A DNA stretch of 32,333 nt from Peptococcaceae bacterium (GTDB taxonomy: Bacteria > Bacillota > Desulfotomaculia > Desulfotomaculales > Pelotomaculaceae). The stretch is from assembly GCA_012518875.1 (NCBI GenBank), contig JAAYRI010000064.1:1-32333 (forward strand). Direction: 5' to 3'. Each line of letters begins with the position of its first letter. Position 1 is the first letter of the stretch. A program made the position numbers and the translations under genes. Below are positions 8,371 through 29,201 of this stretch, piece by piece. The notes beneath the pieces are model-generated. The model was not told the origin of the DNA. It did no database searches and saw only the letters and a program-made list of their open reading frames with translations.

Positions 8371-9207
8371 TTAGTTCCATTGATTGCCCATGAATTGGTT
8401 TAATTCTTCAGCTTTTTCATAAGCCAACCTGGCATCTTCATGCCGGCCCAGCCCAGCTAGTGCCGCAGCTTTGTTCATCCAGGCAGAGGGGTTTTCAGGA
8501 TCCAAGTCCATAGCTTTTTCATAAACCTTTAATGCTTCATCGTACTGGCCCATTTCACCCAGTAGGACCCCCTTATTAATCCAAGCAGAAGGATCCTTGG
8601 GGTTTAATTGCAATGCCTTTTCAAAATCCCGCATTGCTTCCTCATTTCTGCCCAGGGATCCCAGGGCAACACCCTTATTAAGCCAAATGGCAGGATCATT
8701 GGGGAAAATTTCTGCCGCTTTTTCGTAGGATTGCACTGCTTCTTCTTGTCGTCCTAGTTCACCAAGTGCAATACCCTTGTTCATTAATGCAAAGGGATCA
8801 CAGGAATCATGTTCCAATGTTTTTTCAAAGGCTTCTATTGCCTCTACAAAACGCCCCATCGAACCAAGGGCAACACCTTTGTTGAACCAGACATAATAGT
8901 CGTCAGGGTTAATTTCTAGGGCCTTGCTGAAAGCCTTTATCGCCTCCTCATGTCTGCCAGTGGAACCCAATGCTACACCCTTGCTAAACCAGATAGTAGG
9001 GTCATTCCCTTTTTTCTGCAAAGCCTTCTCAAATGCCAATACCGCTTCCTCGTAACGATTTAGCTTACTCAAGGCCAGACCCTTTTTTACCCAAACATCA
9101 GGATCCCCCGGTTTTTTTTCTAGATCCTTTTCACATTCCTGCAGCAATTTGTCATACGGGTTTAAGTTCCCACCTGCATCTTTGTCCATTTTGCTAGATT
9201 TGCCCAT
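8371..9207 (-). CDS. Seven-repeat TPR protein
   Basis: This 278-residue soluble protein consists almost wholly of tetratricopeptide repeats. After a charged head (about 1-35) seven 34-residue repeats follow, most with the pattern W-x-N-K-G-V-A-L-G-x-x-G-R-x-E-E-A and ending in A-L-x-x-N-P. The repeats are very alike, suggesting recent internal duplication or strong selection for a regular superhelix. No signal peptide, membrane segment or catalytic domain is present, so a protein-binding scaffold role is likely but the partner is unknown. The start ATG follows GAAGGGG. The gene has its own terminator. A tiny SD-ATG-stop unit lies upstream at 9261-9282. Confidence 0.93.
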   Translation of the reverse strand: MGKSSKMDKDAGGNLNPYDKLLQECEKDLEKKPGDPDVWVKKGLALSKLNRYEEAVLAFEKALQKKGNDPTIWFSKGVALGSTGRHEEAIKAFSKALEINPDDYYVWFNKGVALGSMGRFVEAIEAFEKTLEHDSCDPFALMNKGIALGELGRQEEAVQSYEKAAEIFPNDPAIWLNKGVALGSLGRNEEAMRDFEKALQLNPKDPSAWINKGVLLGEMGQYDEALKVYEKAMDLDPENPSAWMNKAAALAGLGRHEDARLAYEKAEELNQFMGNQWN

Positions 9208-9309: not shown

Positions 9310-9723
9310 CTAATTATTGATTTCCCCTTCTCTATTACCCCATAAGGTGCCCGGGAGGGCTGGTGCTTTTTTTGTATCCTTTTCCAAAGCTTCTCTCAAA
9401 TCATCCCTAACGCTTTCTTTGGCAAGTTCTACATGAGAATGATAGGCGGAACGGCAGATAAGGTGGGTAGAAACCGGCGAGGTCAGGAAAACAAAGAATA
9501 TCCCAAGAAACAATTTTATACTGAAATGACCCTCAAATAGGAAAAAGAGGAATGTGCCCACAAGAACAAATAGCACACCCAGGGTAGAACTTTTGGCCAG
9601 TGCGTGGGCACGGTTGTATACATCCGGCAGCCTTATAAAACCAATGGAGCCCAGGAATCCAAAAATTGTCCCCATTAGAATAACCACCGCAATGCTTAAT
9701 TCAATCGGGTTATTTCCGTTCAA
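9310..9723 (-). CDS. mrpG: Mrp antiporter subunit G
   Basis: This small membrane subunit of the Mrp Na+/H+ antiporter has three hydrophobic segments and the family signature LGSIGFIRLPDVYNRAHALAKSSTLGV. The reading frame is open further upstream (to 9786), but that part lies inside mrpF. The TTG at 9723 has GAGAGGGG 8 bases ahead and gives 137 residues, overlapping mrpF by 14 bases. The soluble tail of about 45 residues after the last membrane segment is rather long for MrpG, which is often near 110-125 residues. It is the last gene of mrpABCDEFG. Confidence 0.88.
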   Translation of the reverse strand: MNGNNPIELSIAVVILMGTIFGFLGSIGFIRLPDVYNRAHALAKSSTLGVLFVLVGTFLFFLFEGHFSIKLFLGIFFVFLTSPVSTHLICRSAYHSHVELAKESVRDDLREALEKDTKKAPALPGTLWGNREGEINN

Positions 9724-9985
9724 TAACAACACCCCTCTCAATAAATCTAGCAAATGCGATTGTGCCAATGAATGAAAGAATGCCAATCAACAATATCACC
9801 TCAAAAAAGGCAGTGCTTTTTAGGTATACGGAAAAGATAGCTACCCCGGCAATCAGGTAAATCCCCAAAGCATCTAACGCCTGGACACGATCGGGTGCCG
9901 AAGGCCCTCTTACCAACCGATAAATTGTAGCCAGGATTGAAAATATCAAAAGAACCAAAGATACAAACAATATCCCTTTGATCAT
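9710..9985 (-). CDS. mrpF: Mrp antiporter subunit F
   Basis: This 91-residue, three-helix membrane subunit belongs to the Mrp cation/proton antiporter. The conserved cytoplasmic loop RLVRGPSAPDRVQALDALG is the family hallmark. It overlaps the mrpE stop by 4 bases and the mrpG start by 14 bases, consistent with translational coupling. Length is normal for MrpF. Confidence 0.93.
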   Translation of the reverse strand: MIKGILFVSLVLLIFSILATIYRLVRGPSAPDRVQALDALGIYLIAGVAIFSVYLKSTAFFEVILLIGILSFIGTIAFARFIERGVVIERK

Positions 9986-10461
9986 TGTCTTGTCACCCTC
10001 TTAATGGCTTTTTCAAATTTGGTTTTTGATCGCAGAACAGCATCGCTAAGTTCTGGTATATCCATAGCATGGATATACAATACCTTGTTATCCGGGGATA
10101 CCTCAACCACAACAGAACCAGGGGTTAATGTAATGAGGAGGGAAAGTATAGTTACCTCTGCATCTCCCCGCAAACTAGTTTCCAAGGCAAAAATTCCCGG
10201 TTTGATGTTGATTTTTGGTTTAATAGTTTTCCCTATAACTAAAATACTGGAGGTAAACAGCTCATAAATAAAAATTAAAACAAGTTGCACAACAGCATGT
10301 ATAGTAAATAAATAATATTTTGTGGATATAAATCTATGAAAAACAAATAGGATCGCCAGACCAAGCAAATAACCACTAAAAAAGCTAATGTAGCTCCAAT
10401 CATCTTGGAAGAACATCCACAAAAACCCAATGAACAGGTTAATTAAAACTTGCAAAGCCAT
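9982..10461 (-). CDS. mrpE: Mrp antiporter subunit E
   Basis: This is a roughly 159-residue membrane subunit that supports assembly and activity of the Mrp complex. It starts with two hydrophobic segments, and the C-terminal part carries LITLTPGSVVVEVSPDNKVLYIHAMD, typical of MrpE. Starts at 10470 (GTG) and 10467 (ATG) are also open. The ATG at 10461, giving MALQVLINLFIGFLWMF, fits the family N-terminus best. It sits between mrpD and mrpF in the standard order. Confidence 0.9.
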   Translation of the reverse strand: MALQVLINLFIGFLWMFFQDDWSYISFFSGYLLGLAILFVFHRFISTKYYLFTIHAVVQLVLIFIYELFTSSILVIGKTIKPKINIKPGIFALETSLRGDAEVTILSLLITLTPGSVVVEVSPDNKVLYIHAMDIPELSDAVLRSKTKFEKAIKRVTRQ

Positions 10462-10486
10462 CAGCATCACCAGCCTATGTTAAAAA

Positions 10487-11974
10487 CTAGTAGCCACCAC
10501 TGCCTAAAACAGCCCCTATGTAGGCTTGTGGGTTAAGCACCCCTTCTACTGCTAAATCTATATAGCTGTGGATTCCCTCTACACCCAGACCAAGGGCTAT
10601 CGTCAAAACAGTTAGAAAGGCCATTGATGGCAATAATCCTTTTGCTGTTCCTTTTTCGTTATCTGTAGCCAGGTTTGTATAACCCCAAAATACACTCATA
10701 AAAATTTTCATAATAGAATATAACACCAGCAGGCTCGTAAATAGGCCAATTCCACCCAGCCAAAAATAATCTGCCTCAAAGGTTCCGGCGGTAATAAAAA
10801 CCTTGCCGGGAAAGCCACTTAACGGGGGCACACCCGCCAGGGAAAAAGCTGCAATAAAAAACATCCATCCTAGTTGGGGATACAGGCGAATCAGGCCACT
10901 CATATCCCTAAGCCTGCCGGTACCGGTCAGGTGAATAATGGTTCCACCCAGGAGAATAATAAGAGCCTTGATGATCATATCATGGAGCAGATAATACATA
11001 GAGCCCCTCACTCCCACCAGGGTAAAAGAGGCAAACCCAGCCAAAATGAATCCAATCCCCACCACCACGTTATAGGTAATAATTCTTTTTATATCCCAAT
11101 AGGCCACAGCACCCATGGCCCCTAAAACCATGGTCACACCGGCCAAAACCCCAATAAACAGGTGTGTAAACGCCGGTTCATGATAAAAGACAAGGGAAAA
11201 CAGGCGGATAATGGCATAAATACCCACCTTGGTCAGCAAAGAAGCAAATATGGCTGCTATTGCAGTGGGGGCAGCACCATAGGAGCCAGGCAACCAGAAG
11301 AAAAGAAACAAACCTGCTTTTATACTGAACACTATTAAAAACAAAAGAGCAACGGCAGCTATCACCCCACCCTGTCCTACATCTGCCACCCTGACGGACA
11401 AATGGGCCAGATTTAAGGTCCCCATAAGGGAATAAAGATAAGCAATTGCCACTAGAAAAAGTGTGGAAGAAAGCATATTAATTAGGATATATTTAAAGGA
11501 TTCCCTGAGCTGAATTCTTGTGCCTCCAATGGAAATCAACACATAGGAAGCCACCAACATGACCTCAAAACAAACAAACAGGTTGAAAATATCCCCGGTT
11601 AAAAAGGATCCGTTTACCCCGGCGATCAAGAAAAGACATAGGGCATAAAAGTAATGTCTTTCCCTGTCGTTTCCAATGGAGGAAAAGGCATAACATAAAC
11701 AACAAAAGGTAACTGTCGCCCCGACCAAAACCAACAAGACTGCAAACATATCCGCCACCAGGGTAATGCCAAAGGGCGCCTGCCACCCTCCCAGGTATAG
11801 GGTTTGTATTCCCCCCGTTTCGATCTGCCCCAGCAACAATACGGATACAATCCCAATCAGGCCCAGGGTCAAAAGACTCAAAAACCGGTGTAGCCGAATA
11901 TTATTTTTAAATACAACCATTATCATCCCGGAAATAATAGGCATGACAATGGGTAACACAACCCAATTATTCAT
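10487..11974 (-). CDS. mrpD: Mrp antiporter subunit D
   Basis: This 495-residue, many-helix membrane protein is related to the NuoM/NuoN proton-pumping subunits of complex I. Conserved charged membrane residues are visible: the glutamate in LFVCFEVMLVASYVLI and lysines in FSIKAGLFLFFWLPG and LLTKVGIYAIIR. The broken-helix segment SLAGVPPLSGFPGKVF is also present. It overlaps the end of mrpC by 8 bases. With MrpA it is expected to form the ion and proton path. Confidence 0.95.
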   Translation of the reverse strand: MNNWVVLPIVMPIISGMIMVVFKNNIRLHRFLSLLTLGLIGIVSVLLLGQIETGGIQTLYLGGWQAPFGITLVADMFAVLLVLVGATVTFCCLCYAFSSIGNDRERHYFYALCLFLIAGVNGSFLTGDIFNLFVCFEVMLVASYVLISIGGTRIQLRESFKYILINMLSSTLFLVAIAYLYSLMGTLNLAHLSVRVADVGQGGVIAAVALLFLIVFSIKAGLFLFFWLPGSYGAAPTAIAAIFASLLTKVGIYAIIRLFSLVFYHEPAFTHLFIGVLAGVTMVLGAMGAVAYWDIKRIITYNVVVGIGFILAGFASFTLVGVRGSMYYLLHDMIIKALIILLGGTIIHLTGTGRLRDMSGLIRLYPQLGWMFFIAAFSLAGVPPLSGFPGKVFITAGTFEADYFWLGGIGLFTSLLVLYSIMKIFMSVFWGYTNLATDNEKGTAKGLLPSMAFLTVLTIALGLGVEGIHSYIDLAVEGVLNPQAYIGAVLGSGGY

Positions 11975-12305
11975 CCGGATAACCCCTTAATTCCCCCACA
12001 TCATCAGTGCCCAACACCTTATAGGCACGGTAGCTCAACACCAAAAAAAGTGCCGTAGTCGCAAAGTTAATCACAATGGCTGTTAGTAAAAGGGCCTGGG
12101 GTAAAGCATCGGTGAAACTTAGCTCCTGTAGGTCCCGTAGCGGGGGTCCTCCCTTTTTTAGCCCTCCCATTGTTAAAAGAAGCAGATTTGCCCCATGTCC
12201 GATAATAGATGTGCCCAAAATAATTCTTAAAAAAATTTTAGACAAAATCAGATAAGTCCCAATAGCAAATAGAATACCAACAACAATTGACATGCATGTT
12301 TCCAT
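11967..12305 (-). CDS. mrpC: Mrp antiporter subunit C
   Basis: This 112-residue subunit is related to NuoK of complex I, with three membrane segments. The motif LRIILGTSIIGHGANLLLLTMGG and the following FTDALPQALLLTAIVINFATTALFL are typical. The ATG directly follows the mrpB stop codon. The next Met (12293) is a less likely start. AGGTGAT upstream can serve as ribosome binding site. Confidence 0.93.
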   Translation of the reverse strand: METCMSIVVGILFAIGTYLILSKIFLRIILGTSIIGHGANLLLLTMGGLKKGGPPLRDLQELSFTDALPQALLLTAIVINFATTALFLVLSYRAYKVLGTDDVGELRGYPDE

Positions 12306-12731
12306 CTAACGATCATCACCTATGCTAGTTATAATGGTCAAGGATGTGCCGATAACAGTCAGTGCCACCCCGATGTCAAATAATACAGCACTAGCTACCT
12401 CTGTTTCCCCAAAAATAGGCAAATTCACATGGCCAAAGGCCTGGGTTAGAAAGGGCTTCCCCATAATCATTCCGGCAACTCCTGTAAAAACTGAGGTTAA
12501 CACCCCGACTCCGGCAATTATCTTAAAATCTATAGGAATGTTTTTTCTAATACTTTCAATATCATAAACAAGAAAAAGCAGGACAATAGCTGCAACAAAG
12601 GCCAGCCCACCAATAAACCCCCCACCGGGACGGTGGTGGCCTGAAATAAAGAGGCTTACGGAAAAGGTAAGTATAATCACTGCCGCTGCCTTTGTAGCAG
12701 TCCGTAAAACAACATCATTTATTTGCTTCAT
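12306..12731 (-). CDS. mrpB: Mrp antiporter subunit B
   Basis: This 141-residue membrane subunit carries the MnhB domain. The motif SLFISGHHRPGGGFIGGLAFVAAIVLLFL is the clear family mark. It starts inside the end of mrpA (17-base overlap) behind GGAGGAGAG, which fits translational coupling. Four hydrophobic segments are visible. Confidence 0.94.
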   Translation of the reverse strand: MKQINDVVLRTATKAAAVIILTFSVSLFISGHHRPGGGFIGGLAFVAAIVLLFLVYDIESIRKNIPIDFKIIAGVGVLTSVFTGVAGMIMGKPFLTQAFGHVNLPIFGETEVASAVLFDIGVALTVIGTSLTIITSIGDDR

Positions 12732-15126
12732 TTTCTCTCCTCCCTGCCAGGTGAATCTTAATTAAGGCATAAACACCCAACCCGGCAATGGATAGAACCA
12801 AAATTTCCAACATGGTATCAAACCCTCGGAAGTCAACAAGAATAGCATTGACAATATTTTTAGCACCGGCAAGCTCATAGGCGTTTTCATAAAAGCCAGA
12901 AATTGTTTTAAACAAACTGTTCCCCCTGACAGACAAGGCTAACATGGTAGTAACCACACCCACTCCTACTGAAACCAGAACATTTACTGCTTTAAATTGG
13001 ATGGTGCTGTTTTCCTTCCTCAGTTTCGGCAGATGATAAAAACACAACAGAAATAATGCCGTTGTGATTGTCTCCACCACCAACTGGGTAAGAGCCAGGT
13101 CGGGCGCTCGAAAGAGGACAAAAAAGAAGGCGATCAACAAACCCAGAGCCCCTACGGCGATAATAGAGGTTAGCCTGGATCTAGCCAGGAGAACTGTAAG
13201 AGTGGAACAAATCATAGCAACCAGCAGCCCTAATTCATAAAAATTGATCGGGGCATCACCCGACAAATTAAGGGATATACTACCAGATAAAAAGGCAGTA
13301 CCACCAATCATGAAGATGACAAAGCCCAGGATATAAATTAGGTAATCCCGTACAAAACCGGTCATGTACCTTTTTGTTATGACATGAGAAACAGCCTCCA
13401 TTTTTTCTAGCAGAAATTCATATATGTTGTTTAGGGTTAACACCTTTGGATAATAACGATAAATGCTATACCATTTTCCCAAGGTTTTATATAGGAATGC
13501 ACCAACAGCTATGACCCCAATCGTCATTAGCAATTCAACATTCAAACCATGCCAGGCGTCAATTTCAATCTGCTGTAAGGGTGTTTTTGTTGGCAAAACC
13601 GCCTGCCAGGCAGGCTGTAGCAAATATTTTGCCAGGGCGTCAGGGTAGAAAAAAATTATAACAACCAGCGCTGCCAGCATAAAGGGAGGTATCAATATGG
13701 CAACAGGGGTTATGCGTGGTTTTTTCCTTAGTTTATAACCCCTCGGTCTACCGCCAAATGTTCTCAAAAGGATAATCATGCAGTAAACAAAGGTAAATAT
13801 ACTGGCCACCCAGGCTACTAACGCCAGTATGTTCCCCCAGGTTCCCATATGAAAAATAGACATCTTTGATGCATTTAGAACCGCTGTAAAGAACATCTCC
13901 TTACTTAAAAACCCGTTGAAAGGGGGCAGCCCGGCCATGGCAAAACTTCCAATTAGGGCCGGGAGGAAAGACAAAGGCATCAGTTGAAGTAAACCGCCTA
14001 GCTTTTTAATATCCCTCGTGCCTGTTTCCAGGTCGATAATCCCTATGACCATAAACAAGCAGCCCTTAAAGGTAGCATGATTCACCAGGTGGAAAATGGC
14101 GGCAAAGACGGCTACAGCATACAGAACCCCTTCCCCCACCACATCAAAATATAGGGCCGCGGATCCTAACCCCAATAGGCTCATAATTAAACCCAATTGA
14201 CCAACAGTTGAATAAGCTAATAGAGCCTTTAAATCTGTTTGCCTTACCGCATTAACTGAGCCGTATAGTAGGGTAAACAGACCCGTACCGGAAACCAGCC
14301 AAAACCATTCAGGAACCCCGCCAAAAATGGTAGTACAACGGGCAACTAAATAGATACCTGCCTTAACCATAGTGGCAGAATGTAAATAGGCACTCACTGG
14401 GGTGGGAGCCTCCATGGCATCCGGCAACCAGGTACTAAAGGGAAATTGGGCCGACTTTGTGAAGGCTCCCAGGAGAACCAAAAGCATTGATGGAATAAAT
14501 AATGGATGAGATTGGATCACCCCAGCCTGGCCTATCATTTCTCTAATGCTGTGGGTCCCCGTAATTAGCGAAAGCAGGATAAAACCAGACAACATGGCCA
14601 AACCACCAAAAATAGTAATCAACAATGACTTCTGGGCCCCGGATCTCGATTTTTCCCGCTCAAACCAATAAGCAATCAGTAAAAAGGAGGTTATACTGGT
14701 AATTTCCCAAAATACATATAAAACATAGATATTATCAGCAAAAACAAGCCCGAGCATAGAACCCATAAACAAAAGCAAATATATATAGAAGTTATGCAAG
14801 GCTTCCTTCTGCTTGGATAGATAATAAATCGAATAAAAGGTAACAAGAAGTCCTATCCCCGCAATAATCAGACTGAATACAAGGGATAAACCATCTATAT
14901 ACGCAGTAAAATTAATGTCATAAGAGGGAATCCAGGGTAGAGTAAAACTGATTATCTTACCTCTGGCAACAGGAGGGATATAGGTTAAAAGGTGGAGGAA
15001 AACTAGCAAAGGAACAATGAGAACGAACCAGCCTGTATGAATTTTAGCATTAAACTTCTTGTATAAAAGTGGAACTATAAGGGCATATGCAAAGGGAATA
15101 GCATTAATCAAATAAAAACAATGCAT
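12715..15126 (-). CDS. mrpA: Mrp antiporter subunit A
   Basis: This 803-residue subunit is the largest of the Mrp Na+/H+ antiporter and is related to NuoL. It is full length and includes the C-terminal MbhD/MbhE-like helices (from about residue 640, with RAPDLALTQLVVETITTALF). Residues essential in characterised Bacillus MrpA have counterparts: Glu141 in VFWEITSITSF, Lys224 in LGAFTKSAQFPF, and His249 with Lys255 in YLHSATMVKAGIYL. AAAGGAGGAGG precedes the ATG. It is first in mrpABCDEFG and divergent from the KdpD-like gene at 15334. Confidence 0.96.
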   Translation of the reverse strand: MHCFYLINAIPFAYALIVPLLYKKFNAKIHTGWFVLIVPLLVFLHLLTYIPPVARGKIISFTLPWIPSYDINFTAYIDGLSLVFSLIIAGIGLLVTFYSIYYLSKQKEALHNFYIYLLLFMGSMLGLVFADNIYVLYVFWEITSITSFLLIAYWFEREKSRSGAQKSLLITIFGGLAMLSGFILLSLITGTHSIREMIGQAGVIQSHPLFIPSMLLVLLGAFTKSAQFPFSTWLPDAMEAPTPVSAYLHSATMVKAGIYLVARCTTIFGGVPEWFWLVSGTGLFTLLYGSVNAVRQTDLKALLAYSTVGQLGLIMSLLGLGSAALYFDVVGEGVLYAVAVFAAIFHLVNHATFKGCLFMVIGIIDLETGTRDIKKLGGLLQLMPLSFLPALIGSFAMAGLPPFNGFLSKEMFFTAVLNASKMSIFHMGTWGNILALVAWVASIFTFVYCMIILLRTFGGRPRGYKLRKKPRITPVAILIPPFMLAALVVIIFFYPDALAKYLLQPAWQAVLPTKTPLQQIEIDAWHGLNVELLMTIGVIAVGAFLYKTLGKWYSIYRYYPKVLTLNNIYEFLLEKMEAVSHVITKRYMTGFVRDYLIYILGFVIFMIGGTAFLSGSISLNLSGDAPINFYELGLLVAMICSTLTVLLARSRLTSIIAVGALGLLIAFFFVLFRAPDLALTQLVVETITTALFLLCFYHLPKLRKENSTIQFKAVNVLVSVGVGVVTTMLALSVRGNSLFKTISGFYENAYELAGAKNIVNAILVDFRGFDTMLEILVLSIAGLGVYALIKIHLAGRRENEANK

Positions 15127-15223
15127 CTATCCTCCTCCTTTCAAGGAATTGCTACTAAATGGTCTGCTTATTTTTCTCCTGTTTAACAATAACCTTCAGC
15201 CACCTACAAATATTTCACAAGGA

Positions 15224-15244
15224 TTTTCAGGGATTGACTGAAAA
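15224..15244. promoter_or_regulatory. Inverted repeat in the mrp / KdpD-like divergent region
   Basis: A perfect 7-bp inverted repeat, TTTTCAG-N7-CTGAAAA, overlaps the -35 of the rightward promoter. It also lies just downstream of the proposed leftward mrp start site. It could be a shared operator; the regulator is unknown. Confidence 0.5.
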
Positions 15245-15262
15245 TCACACATAAGTTAATAT
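15234..15262 (+). promoter_or_regulatory. Sigma-A promoter of the KdpD-like gene
   Basis: TTGACT (15234-15239) and TAATAT (15257-15262) are 17 bases apart. A second possible -10, TATAAT at 15309-15314 with TTGTGT 18 bases ahead, would leave almost no leader and is less likely. Confidence 0.6.
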
Positions 15263-15265
15263 TCA

Positions 15266-15293
15266 TACATAGCCCACATGCAATTTGTGTCAA
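15266..15293 (-). promoter_or_regulatory. Possible promoter of the mrp operon
   Basis: On the minus strand a consensus TTGACA (15288-15293) is followed after 16 bases by TATGTA (15266-15271). It would give a leader of about 130 bases before mrpA. No riboswitch was recognised in that leader. Confidence 0.45.
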
Positions 15294-15333
15294 ACCATCC
15301 ATCTACAATATAATTCAGAGGTGAAGGGGAAGA

Positions 15334-16026
15334 ATGTCTAGAAGGAAAAAACGCATGGACGAGGGTATCCTCGTTTGTGTCTATTATGGGCCAAACGGTG
15401 AGCGTTTGATACAACGTGGCTGTAAGATCGCACAAACATTTGGCTGCCCTCTCTATATTTTAACTGTGGATAGAAAACCGTTTGCAGAACTGGATGCTGA
15501 AAAATCACATTATATCACCAAATGGAAACAGATGGCTATTAAAAACGGAGCAGATGCCTTTATTCTAAGGGATAATGAAGAACGTCCCGTCTATAAGGTC
15601 ATTGCTGAAGTCGCCCGGGAAAAAGGCATCACCCAAATAATTATGGGGCAAACACCCCATAGCCGCTGGGAACAAATCACAAGAGAATCTATTGTTAATT
15701 CTCTAATACGTGAAATACCATTTGTTGACTTGCATATCATTTCCGTAGCCCGTTATCTCAAGGATCCCGATAGTAATTATGATAAGGGTATACGGGCCTA
15801 CCTGGCCAAGGAGGGTCCATACTATCGGTTGTTTTTTAAACACACCAGGGATGCTGTATATGAGGGAATCTTCTTCAAAGAAGTTGGCACAGATTTTAAC
15901 AACGGGATATTTAAATTTAATAAAGAAAAAGAAACCTTACAGGTAGAAGTAACCGATGATATTGTTAAGGATTTTACCAATGTGGCAATAAAAACAGGTG
16001 ATGCTTCTGATAACAGCGGCCCCTGA
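15334..16026 (+). CDS. Orphan universal-stress-protein domain of the KdpD type
   Basis: The first roughly 145 of 230 residues resemble the UspA-like domain found inside the KdpD potassium sensor kinase: GILVCVYYGPNGERLIQRGCKIA, then GADAFILRD, ITQIIMGQTPHSRWEQITRESIVNSLIRE and VDLHIISV. Here it stands alone, with no histidine kinase, KdpD N-terminal ATPase or membrane segments. The C-terminal extension (about 146-230, with YYRLFFKHTRDAVYEGIFFKE) is not recognised. The promoter is vegetative and overlaps a palindrome. The gene is divergent from the mrp operon, which suggests, but does not prove, a link to cation homeostasis. A nucleotide or regulatory ligand is plausible. A normal ribosome binding site (GAGGTGAAGGGG) precedes the ATG. 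Confidence 0.75.
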   Translation: MSRRKKRMDEGILVCVYYGPNGERLIQRGCKIAQTFGCPLYILTVDRKPFAELDAEKSHYITKWKQMAIKNGADAFILRDNEERPVYKVIAEVAREKGITQIIMGQTPHSRWEQITRESIVNSLIREIPFVDLHIISVARYLKDPDSNYDKGIRAYLAKEGPYYRLFFKHTRDAVYEGIFFKEVGTDFNNGIFKFNKEKETLQVEVTDDIVKDFTNVAIKTGDASDNSGP

Positions 16027-16044: not shown

Positions 16045-16073
16045 TGTCCCTTTCCTCCAATTGGAAAGGGACA
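16045..16073. terminator. Terminator between convergent genes
   Basis: TGTCCCTTTCC and GGAAAGGGACA form an 11-bp stem with a 7-base loop. It is followed by AATTTAATC on the plus strand and by GTCTTTTAA on the minus strand. It probably ends both the KdpD-like gene and the EFR1 gene. Confidence 0.75.
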
Positions 16074-16136: not shown

Positions 16137-16919
16137 TTAAATATAGAGCTCCGGCTCATTTTTCAAAGCGCTAAAGTTATCAATTAACAGCTGTGCGATT
16201 TTGCCCAATATCTCGGGGTTCATAGATTTGGCCCCTTCGGGACATTTTTTTATACAGCTAAAACAGCTTATACAACTCGCGGCATCAACATTGCTATAGT
16301 TATTAAAGTCAATTGCCCCCACCGGACAAATCCTGGCGCATTCTCCACAACTTACACATTTTTCACTTGTTTCTGGTAACAATCCCATTGGTTTTCTTTC
16401 TTTATATGGACGGTTCCCTTTAACATGGAGCTCAGGCATATCGGACAGATTTTTAATTTTTAATAATTTTTCTTTTATCCTCGCTCCAAACCTGCGGGCG
16501 ATCGCCAAATCCTTTTGATCCGGCTTCCCGGTTCCGAGCTTATCGGTAAATGGATGTTCCCCTATAAAAGCCCCTCCGGCAATACCAATAAAGCCATTTC
16601 CCTCAAATATATCCTTTAGCTCTAATAAGGCATCATCATAGTTACGGTTTCCATATACCACTATAAAAACTGCAGCTGTTTTATTTCCCCTTACCCTGCT
16701 AAAATAGTCTACTAGAGGAGCCGGGACCCTCCCCCCATGCACAGGTACCCCGATAATAACGAGATCATTTTCATCAAAAACCAGGTCTTGCTTTCTCTTA
16801 TCCGGCAATGTAATATTATTTTCCGTCATATTAACATTAATGCCCTGGGCAACTGCCTGAACAACCTGGCCCGTTGTGCCGGTAGCGCTGAAATAAAGCA
16901 AATTTAGGTGTTTGTTCAT
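16137..16919 (-). CDS. EFR1-type flavodoxin/ferredoxin fusion protein
   Basis: The 260-residue protein has an N-terminal flavodoxin-like domain, with FMN phosphate loop SATGTTG (11-17), and a C-terminal ferredoxin domain. The ferredoxin cysteines are 188, 191, 194, 198 and 216, 219, 222, 226, enough for two [4Fe-4S] clusters. This layout matches the EFR1 family common in anaerobic Firmicutes, whose redox partners are mostly unknown. It likely transfers electrons in the cytoplasm. AAGGCGG lies ahead of the ATG. The gene follows nagB on the same strand after 80 bases and could be co-transcribed. Confidence 0.85.
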   Translation of the reverse strand: MNKHLNLLYFSATGTTGQVVQAVAQGINVNMTENNITLPDKRKQDLVFDENDLVIIGVPVHGGRVPAPLVDYFSRVRGNKTAAVFIVVYGNRNYDDALLELKDIFEGNGFIGIAGGAFIGEHPFTDKLGTGKPDQKDLAIARRFGARIKEKLLKIKNLSDMPELHVKGNRPYKERKPMGLLPETSEKCVSCGECARICPVGAIDFNNYSNVDAASCISCFSCIKKCPEGAKSMNPEILGKIAQLLIDNFSALKNEPELYI

Positions 16920-28834: not shown

Positions 28835-29155
28835 TTATAGTTCCTCCAGTTGTTTATCAATAACCTCCAGTCGGCTTTGCAGATAATTTTTTTGTTCTTC
28901 CAATAGCTCTTTTTGCGTCTTTGATGATGCTTGGCCGGCAACCAAACCACCGCCCAGGCCCATACCAAAGCCACCACCAAATCCGCGGCCAAAACCACGA
29001 CCAAAACCACGACCAAATCCGCGTCTACAAGCAAAGCCAAATCCTAGCCCGGCACCGGCTCCGTACCCGGCAACATTTGCCTCTGTGCAAGGTCCCAGGC
29101 CCCTTCCAGTCATTGCGCCGGCACCCATTGGGCCAGTTCCATCTCCTCTCGGCAT
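28835..29155 (-). CDS. Glycine-rich DUF5320-like protein
   Basis: The 106-residue protein begins MPRGDGTGPMGAGAMTGRGLGPC, the usual start of the DUF5320 family of small proteins found in anaerobes and archaea. The middle is a run of RGFG units and glycines (about 45-70). The last 35 residues (TQKELLEEQKNYLQSRLEVIDKQLEEL) form a probable coiled coil. Two cysteines (about 23 and 43) flank the glycine region. Function is unknown; such genes often lie near nitrogenase-cofactor (NifX/NifB-like) iron-molybdenum proteins, but none is present here. A perfect AAAGGAGGTG precedes the ATG at 29155. The promoter at 29202-29229 is strong. Confidence 0.8.
   Translation of the reverse strand: MPRGDGTGPMGAGAMTGRGLGPCTEANVAGYGAGAGLGFGFACRRGFGRGFGRGFGRGFGGGFGMGLGGGLVAGQASSKTQKELLEEQKNYLQSRLEVIDKQLEEL
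28977..29024. repeat. Four tandem 12-bp units encoding RGFG repeats
   Basis: Four in-frame 12-base units of the type CCAAAACCACGA or CCAAATCCGCGG lie inside the DUF5320-like gene. Two central units are identical. Slippage could change the number of units between strains. Confidence 0.85.
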
Positions 29156-29201
29156 AATATTCACCTCCTTTGGTTATTGGCATATGCCTCTTACAACACT
29201 T

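What the first reader, a model, noticed from the sequence alone, without database searches (positions are those of the whole stretch)
15127..16026. Stand-alone KdpD-type USP domain facing the Mrp operon across a shared palindrome
Seen: a 230-residue protein resembling the USP domain of the KdpD sensor, without kinase or membrane parts, is divergent from mrpABCDEFG. A 7-bp inverted repeat (15224-15244) overlaps the rightward -35 and lies just inside the leftward transcript. KdpD USP domains are known to tune potassium signalling and to bind c-di-AMP in some bacteria. Inference: a detached sensor for cation homeostasis paired with Mrp. The C-terminal 85 residues are unexplained.
Basis: partly seen in the sequence, partly recalled or inferred. 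Interest (0 to 1): 0.55.

Follow-up and report, generated by a model that had tools for sequence, protein, structure and literature searches.

The report
Conserved USP protein partnered with Mrp
A small soluble protein with a nucleotide-pocket domain sits next to the Mrp sodium/proton antiporter genes in many Bacillota, which suggests an undescribed dedicated regulator of that pump.

Summary
The gene is real and the pairing is strong. The 230-residue protein (15334-16026, +) has a KdpD-type USP domain (Pfam Usp above cut-off; best solved match is the S. aureus KdpD USP, Z 15.1) plus a C-terminal five-strand module that has no Pfam family. Of the 80 best named relatives, 79 have mrpA beside the gene: 78 divergent, one co-directional. 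Two more distant relatives also place it directly upstream of mrpA on the same strand. Of 398 phylum genomes, the 20 holding the family are the same 20 holding the C-terminal module, and all 20 have MrpA (49 of 398 overall). The 'shared palindrome' does not hold up: its arms are 9 bp, but only 1 of 74 alignable promoters keeps them. What is conserved is a core promoter, TTGACT-N17/18-TATAGT-CATACATAGTTTA, found only at this gene in 9 of 12 genomes searched. The published c-di-AMP motif is absent from 60 of 60 proteins; adenine-pocket positions and a degenerate ATP-loop motif (38 of 60) are kept. Best explanation: a cytosolic, adenine-nucleotide-sensing accessory regulator of the Mrp complex. 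The partnership is well supported; the mechanism is inferred. No paper describing it was found in the searched library.

The parts
15334..16026 (+). Gene for the 230-aa Mrp-linked USP protein
   Evidence: ORF; full-length relatives 32-96% identical, 60-sequence alignment; conserved beside mrpA
15361..15756 (+). KdpD-type USP domain, about residues 10-141
   Evidence: PF00582, NF038185 local match, fold match 7ji4 Z 15.1 over model residues 9-139
15769..15987 (+). C-terminal five-strand module, residues 146-218
   Evidence: Predicted alone at mean pLDDT 91.5; no Pfam family in 60 members; only in the 20 family genomes of 398
15234..15272 (+). Core promoter of the USP gene: TTGACT 15234-15239, second hexamer TAATAT 15257-15262 (or AATATT 15258-15263), conserved tail CATACATAG to 15272
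   Evidence: aligned across 74 of 81 upstream regions with conservation beyond the hexamers
15222..15246 (.). 9-bp inverted repeat GATTTTCAG-N7-CTGAAAATC, judged lineage-specific or chance
   Evidence: not conserved; 33 of 2000 shuffles reach 9 bp
12715..15126 (-). mrpA
   Evidence: NF009285 and TIGR00940 above cut-off
12306..12731 (-). mrpB (named by gene order; not scanned separately)
   Evidence: ORF, conserved in order with mrpA
11967..12305 (-). mrpC (named by gene order; not scanned separately)
   Evidence: ORF, conserved in order
10487..11974 (-). mrpD
   Evidence: NF005818 above cut-off
9982..10470 (-). mrpE
   Evidence: NF009292, E 5.5e-55, 185.7 bits, below its cut-off of 213
9710..9985 (-). 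mrpF (named by gene order; not scanned separately)
   Evidence: ORF, conserved in order
9310..9786 (-). mrpG
   Evidence: PF03334 above cut-off
16045..16073 (.). Terminator-like hairpin between the USP gene and the convergent flavodoxin/ferredoxin-type gene, usable on either strand

Best explanation
The protein is a dedicated soluble accessory of the Mrp cation/proton antiporter. Its KdpD-type USP domain reads an intracellular adenine nucleotide (ATP, AMP or a related ligand). Its C-terminal five-strand module makes the contact, most likely with a cytosolic face of the Mrp complex, so that antiport activity follows energy or osmotic state. Shown here: the domain make-up, the conserved two-part architecture, the genome-wide tie to Mrp, and adjacency to mrpA in both orientations. 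Inferred: nucleotide binding, physical contact with Mrp, and the direction of regulation.
For: Adjacency: 79 of the 80 best named relatives have mrpA beside the gene, 78 divergent and 1 co-directional. Co-occurrence: the same 20 of 398 phylum genomes carry the family (after setting aside two hits to 387/390-aa frames that match only the USP part) and the C-terminal module; all 20 are among the 49 with MrpA; hypergeometric P 1.1e-20, ignoring relatedness. Architecture: 60 of 60 aligned members hold PF00582, and 20 columns are invariant, six of them in the C-terminal module (G152, G178, F180, T186, F188, G191). Pocket: C15 in 59 of 60, L43 in 59, T44 in 57, G105 in 60, degenerate ATP loop G-X2-A-X9-G-S in 38 of 60, read against the pocket description in PMC8214093 (passages). 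Precedent: TeaD, a USP tied to the ectoine transporter TeaABC, ranks among the structural matches (Z 12.8), and PMC5549992 says TeaD may regulate TeaABC (passages).
Against: No binding, interaction or activity data exist. 29 of 49 MrpA genomes lack the family, and two Mrp loci read in detail (a Listeria record and a Niallia megaplasmid) have no USP-family hit in the stretch fetched, about 6 kb on each side of mrpA, so Mrp does not need it. One family member (L162, 33% identity) has no mrp gene within its 15 kb; its genome's MrpA lies on another contig. The nucleotide loop has low model confidence (pLDDT below 50 at residues 108-117). The window's own loop is G-X2-P-X9-E-S, further from the ATP motif than most relatives.
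Confidence: 0.5

Rival explanations
1. The protein acts on expression: it controls transcription from the mrp / USP promoter region, directly or by scaffolding another regulator, as UspC does for KdpD/KdpE.
For: Head-to-head arrangement is the majority state. The USP promoter carries conserved sequence beyond the hexamers, gCATaaG before and CATacAtAgttta after the -10, found only at this promoter in 9 of 12 genomes, each once. UspC scaffolding of KdpD/KdpE is cited in PMC3673472 and PMC5549992 (passages).
Against: No DNA-binding family or convincing DNA-binding fold was found for either domain. In co-directional loci (L088, L160, L161) the pairing persists without a divergent promoter. The conserved block could serve another regulator.
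Confidence: 0.2
2. An assembly or stability factor for the seven-subunit Mrp complex rather than a sensor.
For: Tight linkage to mrp with a conserved small beta module suited to protein contact.
Against: Most MrpA genomes do without it (29 of 49). Pocket residues are retained, which an assembly factor would not need.
Confidence: 0.13
3. A c-di-AMP receptor that couples osmotic second-messenger signalling to Mrp.
For: Nearest solved fold is the c-di-AMP-bound KdpD USP (7ji4). The own genome has two DAC-domain ORFs.
Against: The published motif (A/G/C)XSXSX2N(Y/F) is absent in 60 of 60 members; the positions aligned to Ser244, Ser246 and Tyr271 are Tyr, Gly and Thr (functional roles from PMC8214093 and PMC4686210, passages).
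Confidence: 0.1
4. An independently acting stress protein that is merely co-regulated with mrp.
For: USPs are often general stress proteins (PMC8214093, passages); the own genome has two other short USP proteins.
Against: Exclusive occurrence with MrpA, a family-specific C-terminal module, and persistence next to mrpA through orientation changes.
Confidence: 0.07

Closest known systems
USP domain of KdpD (S. aureus, 7ji4)
   Same: Same fold (Z 15.1, rmsd 3.2, 120 residues aligned, 16% identity) and conserved first loop glycine (G105, aligned to Gly329 and PMC8214093)
   Different: Stand-alone, without the KdpD N-terminal, membrane and kinase domains; lacks the c-di-AMP motif; carries an extra C-terminal module
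KdpD-like non-kinase potassium sensor (NF038185); compare the short D. geothermalis KdpD of PMC11018627 (abstract)
   Same: USP part matches profile positions 240-371
   Different: Lacks the first about 240 positions; 108.7 bits against a 550-bit cut-off; pairs with Mrp, not Kdp
TeaD, USP of the TeaABC ectoine transporter (3hgm)
   Same: Small USP protein encoded with a transporter and proposed to regulate it (passages); fold match Z 12.8
   Different: TeaD is listed as ATP-binding with G-AE-G-(9X)-GS (PMC3673472, passages); chain of 147 residues with no C-terminal module; unrelated transporter
Haloarchaeal long MrpE (PRK12652 type)
   Same: A Mrp operon protein with an extra N-terminal part (L170, 386 aa)
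   Different: The extra part is not detectably USP: no PF00582, profile match probability 1.5%

Membership tests
Universal stress protein superfamily | PF00582 above gathering cut-off | tested here: met
   31 bits against 24; 60 of 60 aligned members match at E <= 0.01
Universal stress protein superfamily | USP fold | tested here: met
   AlphaFold2 model m11bb64d39abb; top matches are USP structures, Z up to 15.1
KdpD sensor kinase | N-terminal KdpD domain PF02702 and histidine kinase domains | tested here: not met
   Only PF00582 passes its cut-off in the 230-aa protein
KdpD-like non-kinase potassium sensor NF038185 | Score above the 550-bit cut-off over a 373-position model | tested here: not met
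   108.7 bits, positions 240-371 only
c-di-AMP-binding KdpD USP subfamily | (A/G/C)XSXSX2N(Y/F) motif (PMC8214093) | tested here: not met
   0 of 60 members
ATP-binding USPs (USPFG type) | G-X2-G-X9-G-(S/T) loop | tested here: not met
   0 of 60 canonical; 38 of 60 have the degenerate G-X2-A-X9-G-S; window has G-X2-P-X9-E-S
ATP-binding USPs (USPFG type) | Adenosine or ATP binding | not testable with these tools
   Needs purified protein
Known fold class for the C-terminal module | Confident structural match | tested here: inconclusive
   Best Foldseek E 0.66; best Z 3.4 to a NusG chain
Transporter-regulating USP such as TeaD (functional likeness) | Physical regulation of the linked transporter | not testable with these tools
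   Only genetic linkage shown

The most novel reading that the evidence does not exclude
The Mrp antiporter of many Bacillota has an unrecognised eighth, cytosolic component: a nucleotide-sensing USP protein that binds the complex through an uncatalogued small beta module and gates cation/proton exchange in response to energy or osmotic state.
Probability: 0.38. Interest if true: 0.75.

Novelty: new variant of a known kind. Interest (0 to 1): 0.55.

Why it matters
Mrp antiporters sustain sodium and alkali tolerance in many Bacillota and share ancestry with respiratory complex I subunits (recalled). How their activity is tuned to cell state is, to my knowledge, not settled. A conserved partner present in cultured Bacillaceae would make that question directly testable by deletion, co-purification and ligand assays.

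Tried and rejected
Shared palindrome as operator: rejected, not conserved and reached by 33 of 2000 shuffles. Riboswitch in the intergenic region: no Rfam match by gathering score over the whole window or by E-value in 14900-15500. Canonical c-di-AMP or ATP motif: 0 of 60 each. USP fused to haloarchaeal MrpE as an independent parallel: not supported. A ribosome-site-sequestering hairpin in the USP leader: TTCACnTC lies near the ribosome site in only 26 of 81 upstream regions, not pursued. A consistent mrpA promoter on the minus strand: not seen in the 31 regions printed. Plasmid copies of the family: tblastn of plasmids gave 55 records, none covering 80% of the query, and the 20 listed are KdpD or USP proteins or unannotated. 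Fold of the C-terminal module: only weak small-barrel matches. Literature: ten searches listed no paper whose title or abstract start describes a USP protein linked to Mrp; several returned nothing, and the listed papers were not all read.

Rows dropped: the promoter alignment required TTGAC and one of three -10 forms, so those letters are conserved by construction; 7 of 81 upstream regions were dropped for not fitting, and 4 more were dropped (70 used). Two of the 22 phylum hits (G301, G372) were set aside as KdpD-like proteins of about 390 aa. Only the best 80 of 366 relatives found could be examined.

Full report
What is there. The window carries a complete mrp operon on the minus strand (mrpA 12715-15126 down to mrpG 9310-9786) and, divergent from mrpA across 207 bp, a 230-residue protein gene at 15334-16026. 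MrpA, MrpD, MrpE and MrpG were identified by profile (MrpE below its cut-off); B, C and F are named by order. The protein has a USP domain at residues 12-129 (PF00582, 31 bits against a cut-off of 24) and its best NCBIfam match is the USP end of the KdpD-like non-kinase sensor model (E 3.7e-31 but 108.7 bits against 550). So it is KdpD-type in its USP domain without being KdpD.

Conservation of the family. A scan of named bacterial and archaeal genomes found 366 relatives, of which the best 80 were kept: syntrophic and related Clostridia-type MAGs and many Bacillaceae (Neobacillus, Niallia, Cytobacillus, Peribacillus, Robertmurraya and others), 62-96% identical. A 60-member alignment includes distant members down to 32% identity and shows the C-terminal part to be about as conserved as the whole (mean column identity 68% for residues 146-218, against 71% overall).

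Linkage to Mrp. Of the 80 named loci, 78 have mrpA divergent from the USP gene, one (L088, a Eubacteriales MAG) has USP then mrpA on one strand, and one (L038) has only 514 bp of upstream DNA with no mrpA. The start-to-start gap in the 78 divergent loci has a median of 185.5 bp, with two outliers at 786 and 1393. A pairing that survives orientation change is better explained by shared function than by a shared promoter.

Co-occurrence. Among 398 genomes of the phylum, the family profile hits 22 at E <= 1e-25; two are KdpD-like proteins, leaving 20. The C-terminal module alone hits the same 20 genomes and no others. MrpA (TIGR00940, E <= 1e-150) is found in 49, and the 20 are all among them; the hypergeometric P is 1.1e-20, which overstates the case because genomes are related. 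Handles agree between the three searches, so I take the 398 to be the same set. Conversely 29 of 49 MrpA genomes lack the family, so Mrp works without it elsewhere. A Listeria record and a Niallia megaplasmid have mrp with no USP-family match in the stretch read.

Structure. The full model has mean pLDDT 78.9 and pTM 0.56. Its USP part matches the S. aureus KdpD USP domain bound to c-di-AMP best (7ji4, Foldseek E 2.2e-6; Z 15.1, rmsd 3.2, 120 residues), with other USPs including TeaD close behind. The C-terminal module predicted alone reaches mean pLDDT 91.5 with five strands. It has no Pfam match in 60 members (two single-member hits to unrelated families are disregarded) and only weak PDB matches (Foldseek best E 0.66; best Z 3.4 to NusG). 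That says no clear relative was found, not that the fold is new.

Ligand pocket. PMC8214093 (passages) gives the KdpD c-di-AMP motif (A/G/C)XSXSX2N(Y/F) and describes an adenosine pocket common to USPs: a small last residue of strand 1, an aliphatic then Tyr/His/Thr pair in strand 2, and the first loop glycine. By the alignment to 7ji4 (E 0.024) these positions are C15, L43, T44 and G105 here, kept in 59, 59, 57 and 60 of 60 members (mapping of individual residues is mine). The c-di-AMP serines align with Y17 and G19; the motif is absent in 60 of 60. The ATP loop G-X2-G-X9-G-(S/T) is absent in canonical form, but 38 of 60 have G-X2-A-X9-G-S. An adenine nucleotide other than c-di-AMP is therefore the likelier ligand, if there is one. 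The own genome has two DAC-domain ORFs, no PF02702 match (the genome is about 80% complete) and two other short USP proteins.

Promoter region. The inverted repeat has 9-bp arms but only the window keeps all nine pairs among 74 aligned promoters, and 33 of 2000 shuffles of the intergenic region reach 9 bp. In contrast the USP promoter itself is conserved from Clostridia to Bacillaceae: TTGACT, 17-18 bp, TATAGT, then CATACATAGTTTA, with gCATaaG just before the -10 (70 sequences). A search with GYTATAGTCATACATAG allowing one mismatch found exactly one site in 9 of 12 genomes and none in 3, including the window's own; one reversed-pattern control match was seen. By coordinates the nine sites are those upstream of the USP gene. 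The block may be a site for a dedicated regulator or a special promoter; which is open. No riboswitch was found.

How it probably works. The most economical reading is a soluble partner of Mrp, with the USP domain as nucleotide sensor and the beta module as the docking part. Precedents exist for USPs acting on transporters: TeaD for TeaABC and UspC for KdpD/KdpE, as summarised in PMC5549992 (passages), and KdpD acting post-translationally on KdpFABC, through a domain this protein lacks (PMC11018627, abstract). Every mechanistic step beyond linkage and architecture is inference.

Novelty. The ten library searches listed no paper that, by title and abstract start, describes a USP protein tied to Mrp. 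The library lacks most subscription papers, so this is not proof. I rate it a new variant of a known kind: a transporter-linked USP, with a new partner and an uncatalogued C-terminal module.

Noticed in passing
window 16137-16919 (-): A flavodoxin-like plus two-[4Fe-4S] protein converges on the USP gene; the pair is kept in L035, L036 and L037 but not matched in the other named loci.
   Followed up: partly
window 8371-9207 (-): A TPR protein follows mrpG; it was matched only in L035 and L036 among 80 named loci.
   Followed up: partly
L029 and L030 (G050, G040): A 753-residue open frame with two USP-like stretches, distinct from this family; no mrp gene was matched in these loci by the window's proteins.
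   Followed up: no
L156 (G154) and G154:C49: Genome G154 has two copies of the USP family gene and two MrpA matches, suggesting a duplicated system.
   Followed up: no
USP leader in Bacillaceae loci such as L054, L070, L107: A TTCACATC...GAGGTGA arrangement that could pair with the ribosome site occurs in 26 of 81 upstream regions.
   Followed up: partly
window 28835-29164 (-): A 109-residue glycine/arginine/phenylalanine-rich ORF with RGFGRGFG repeats.
   Followed up: no
L170 2982-4142 (Halomontanus rarus plasmid): A 386-residue MrpE with about 186 extra N-terminal residues that match no Pfam family.
   Followed up: partly
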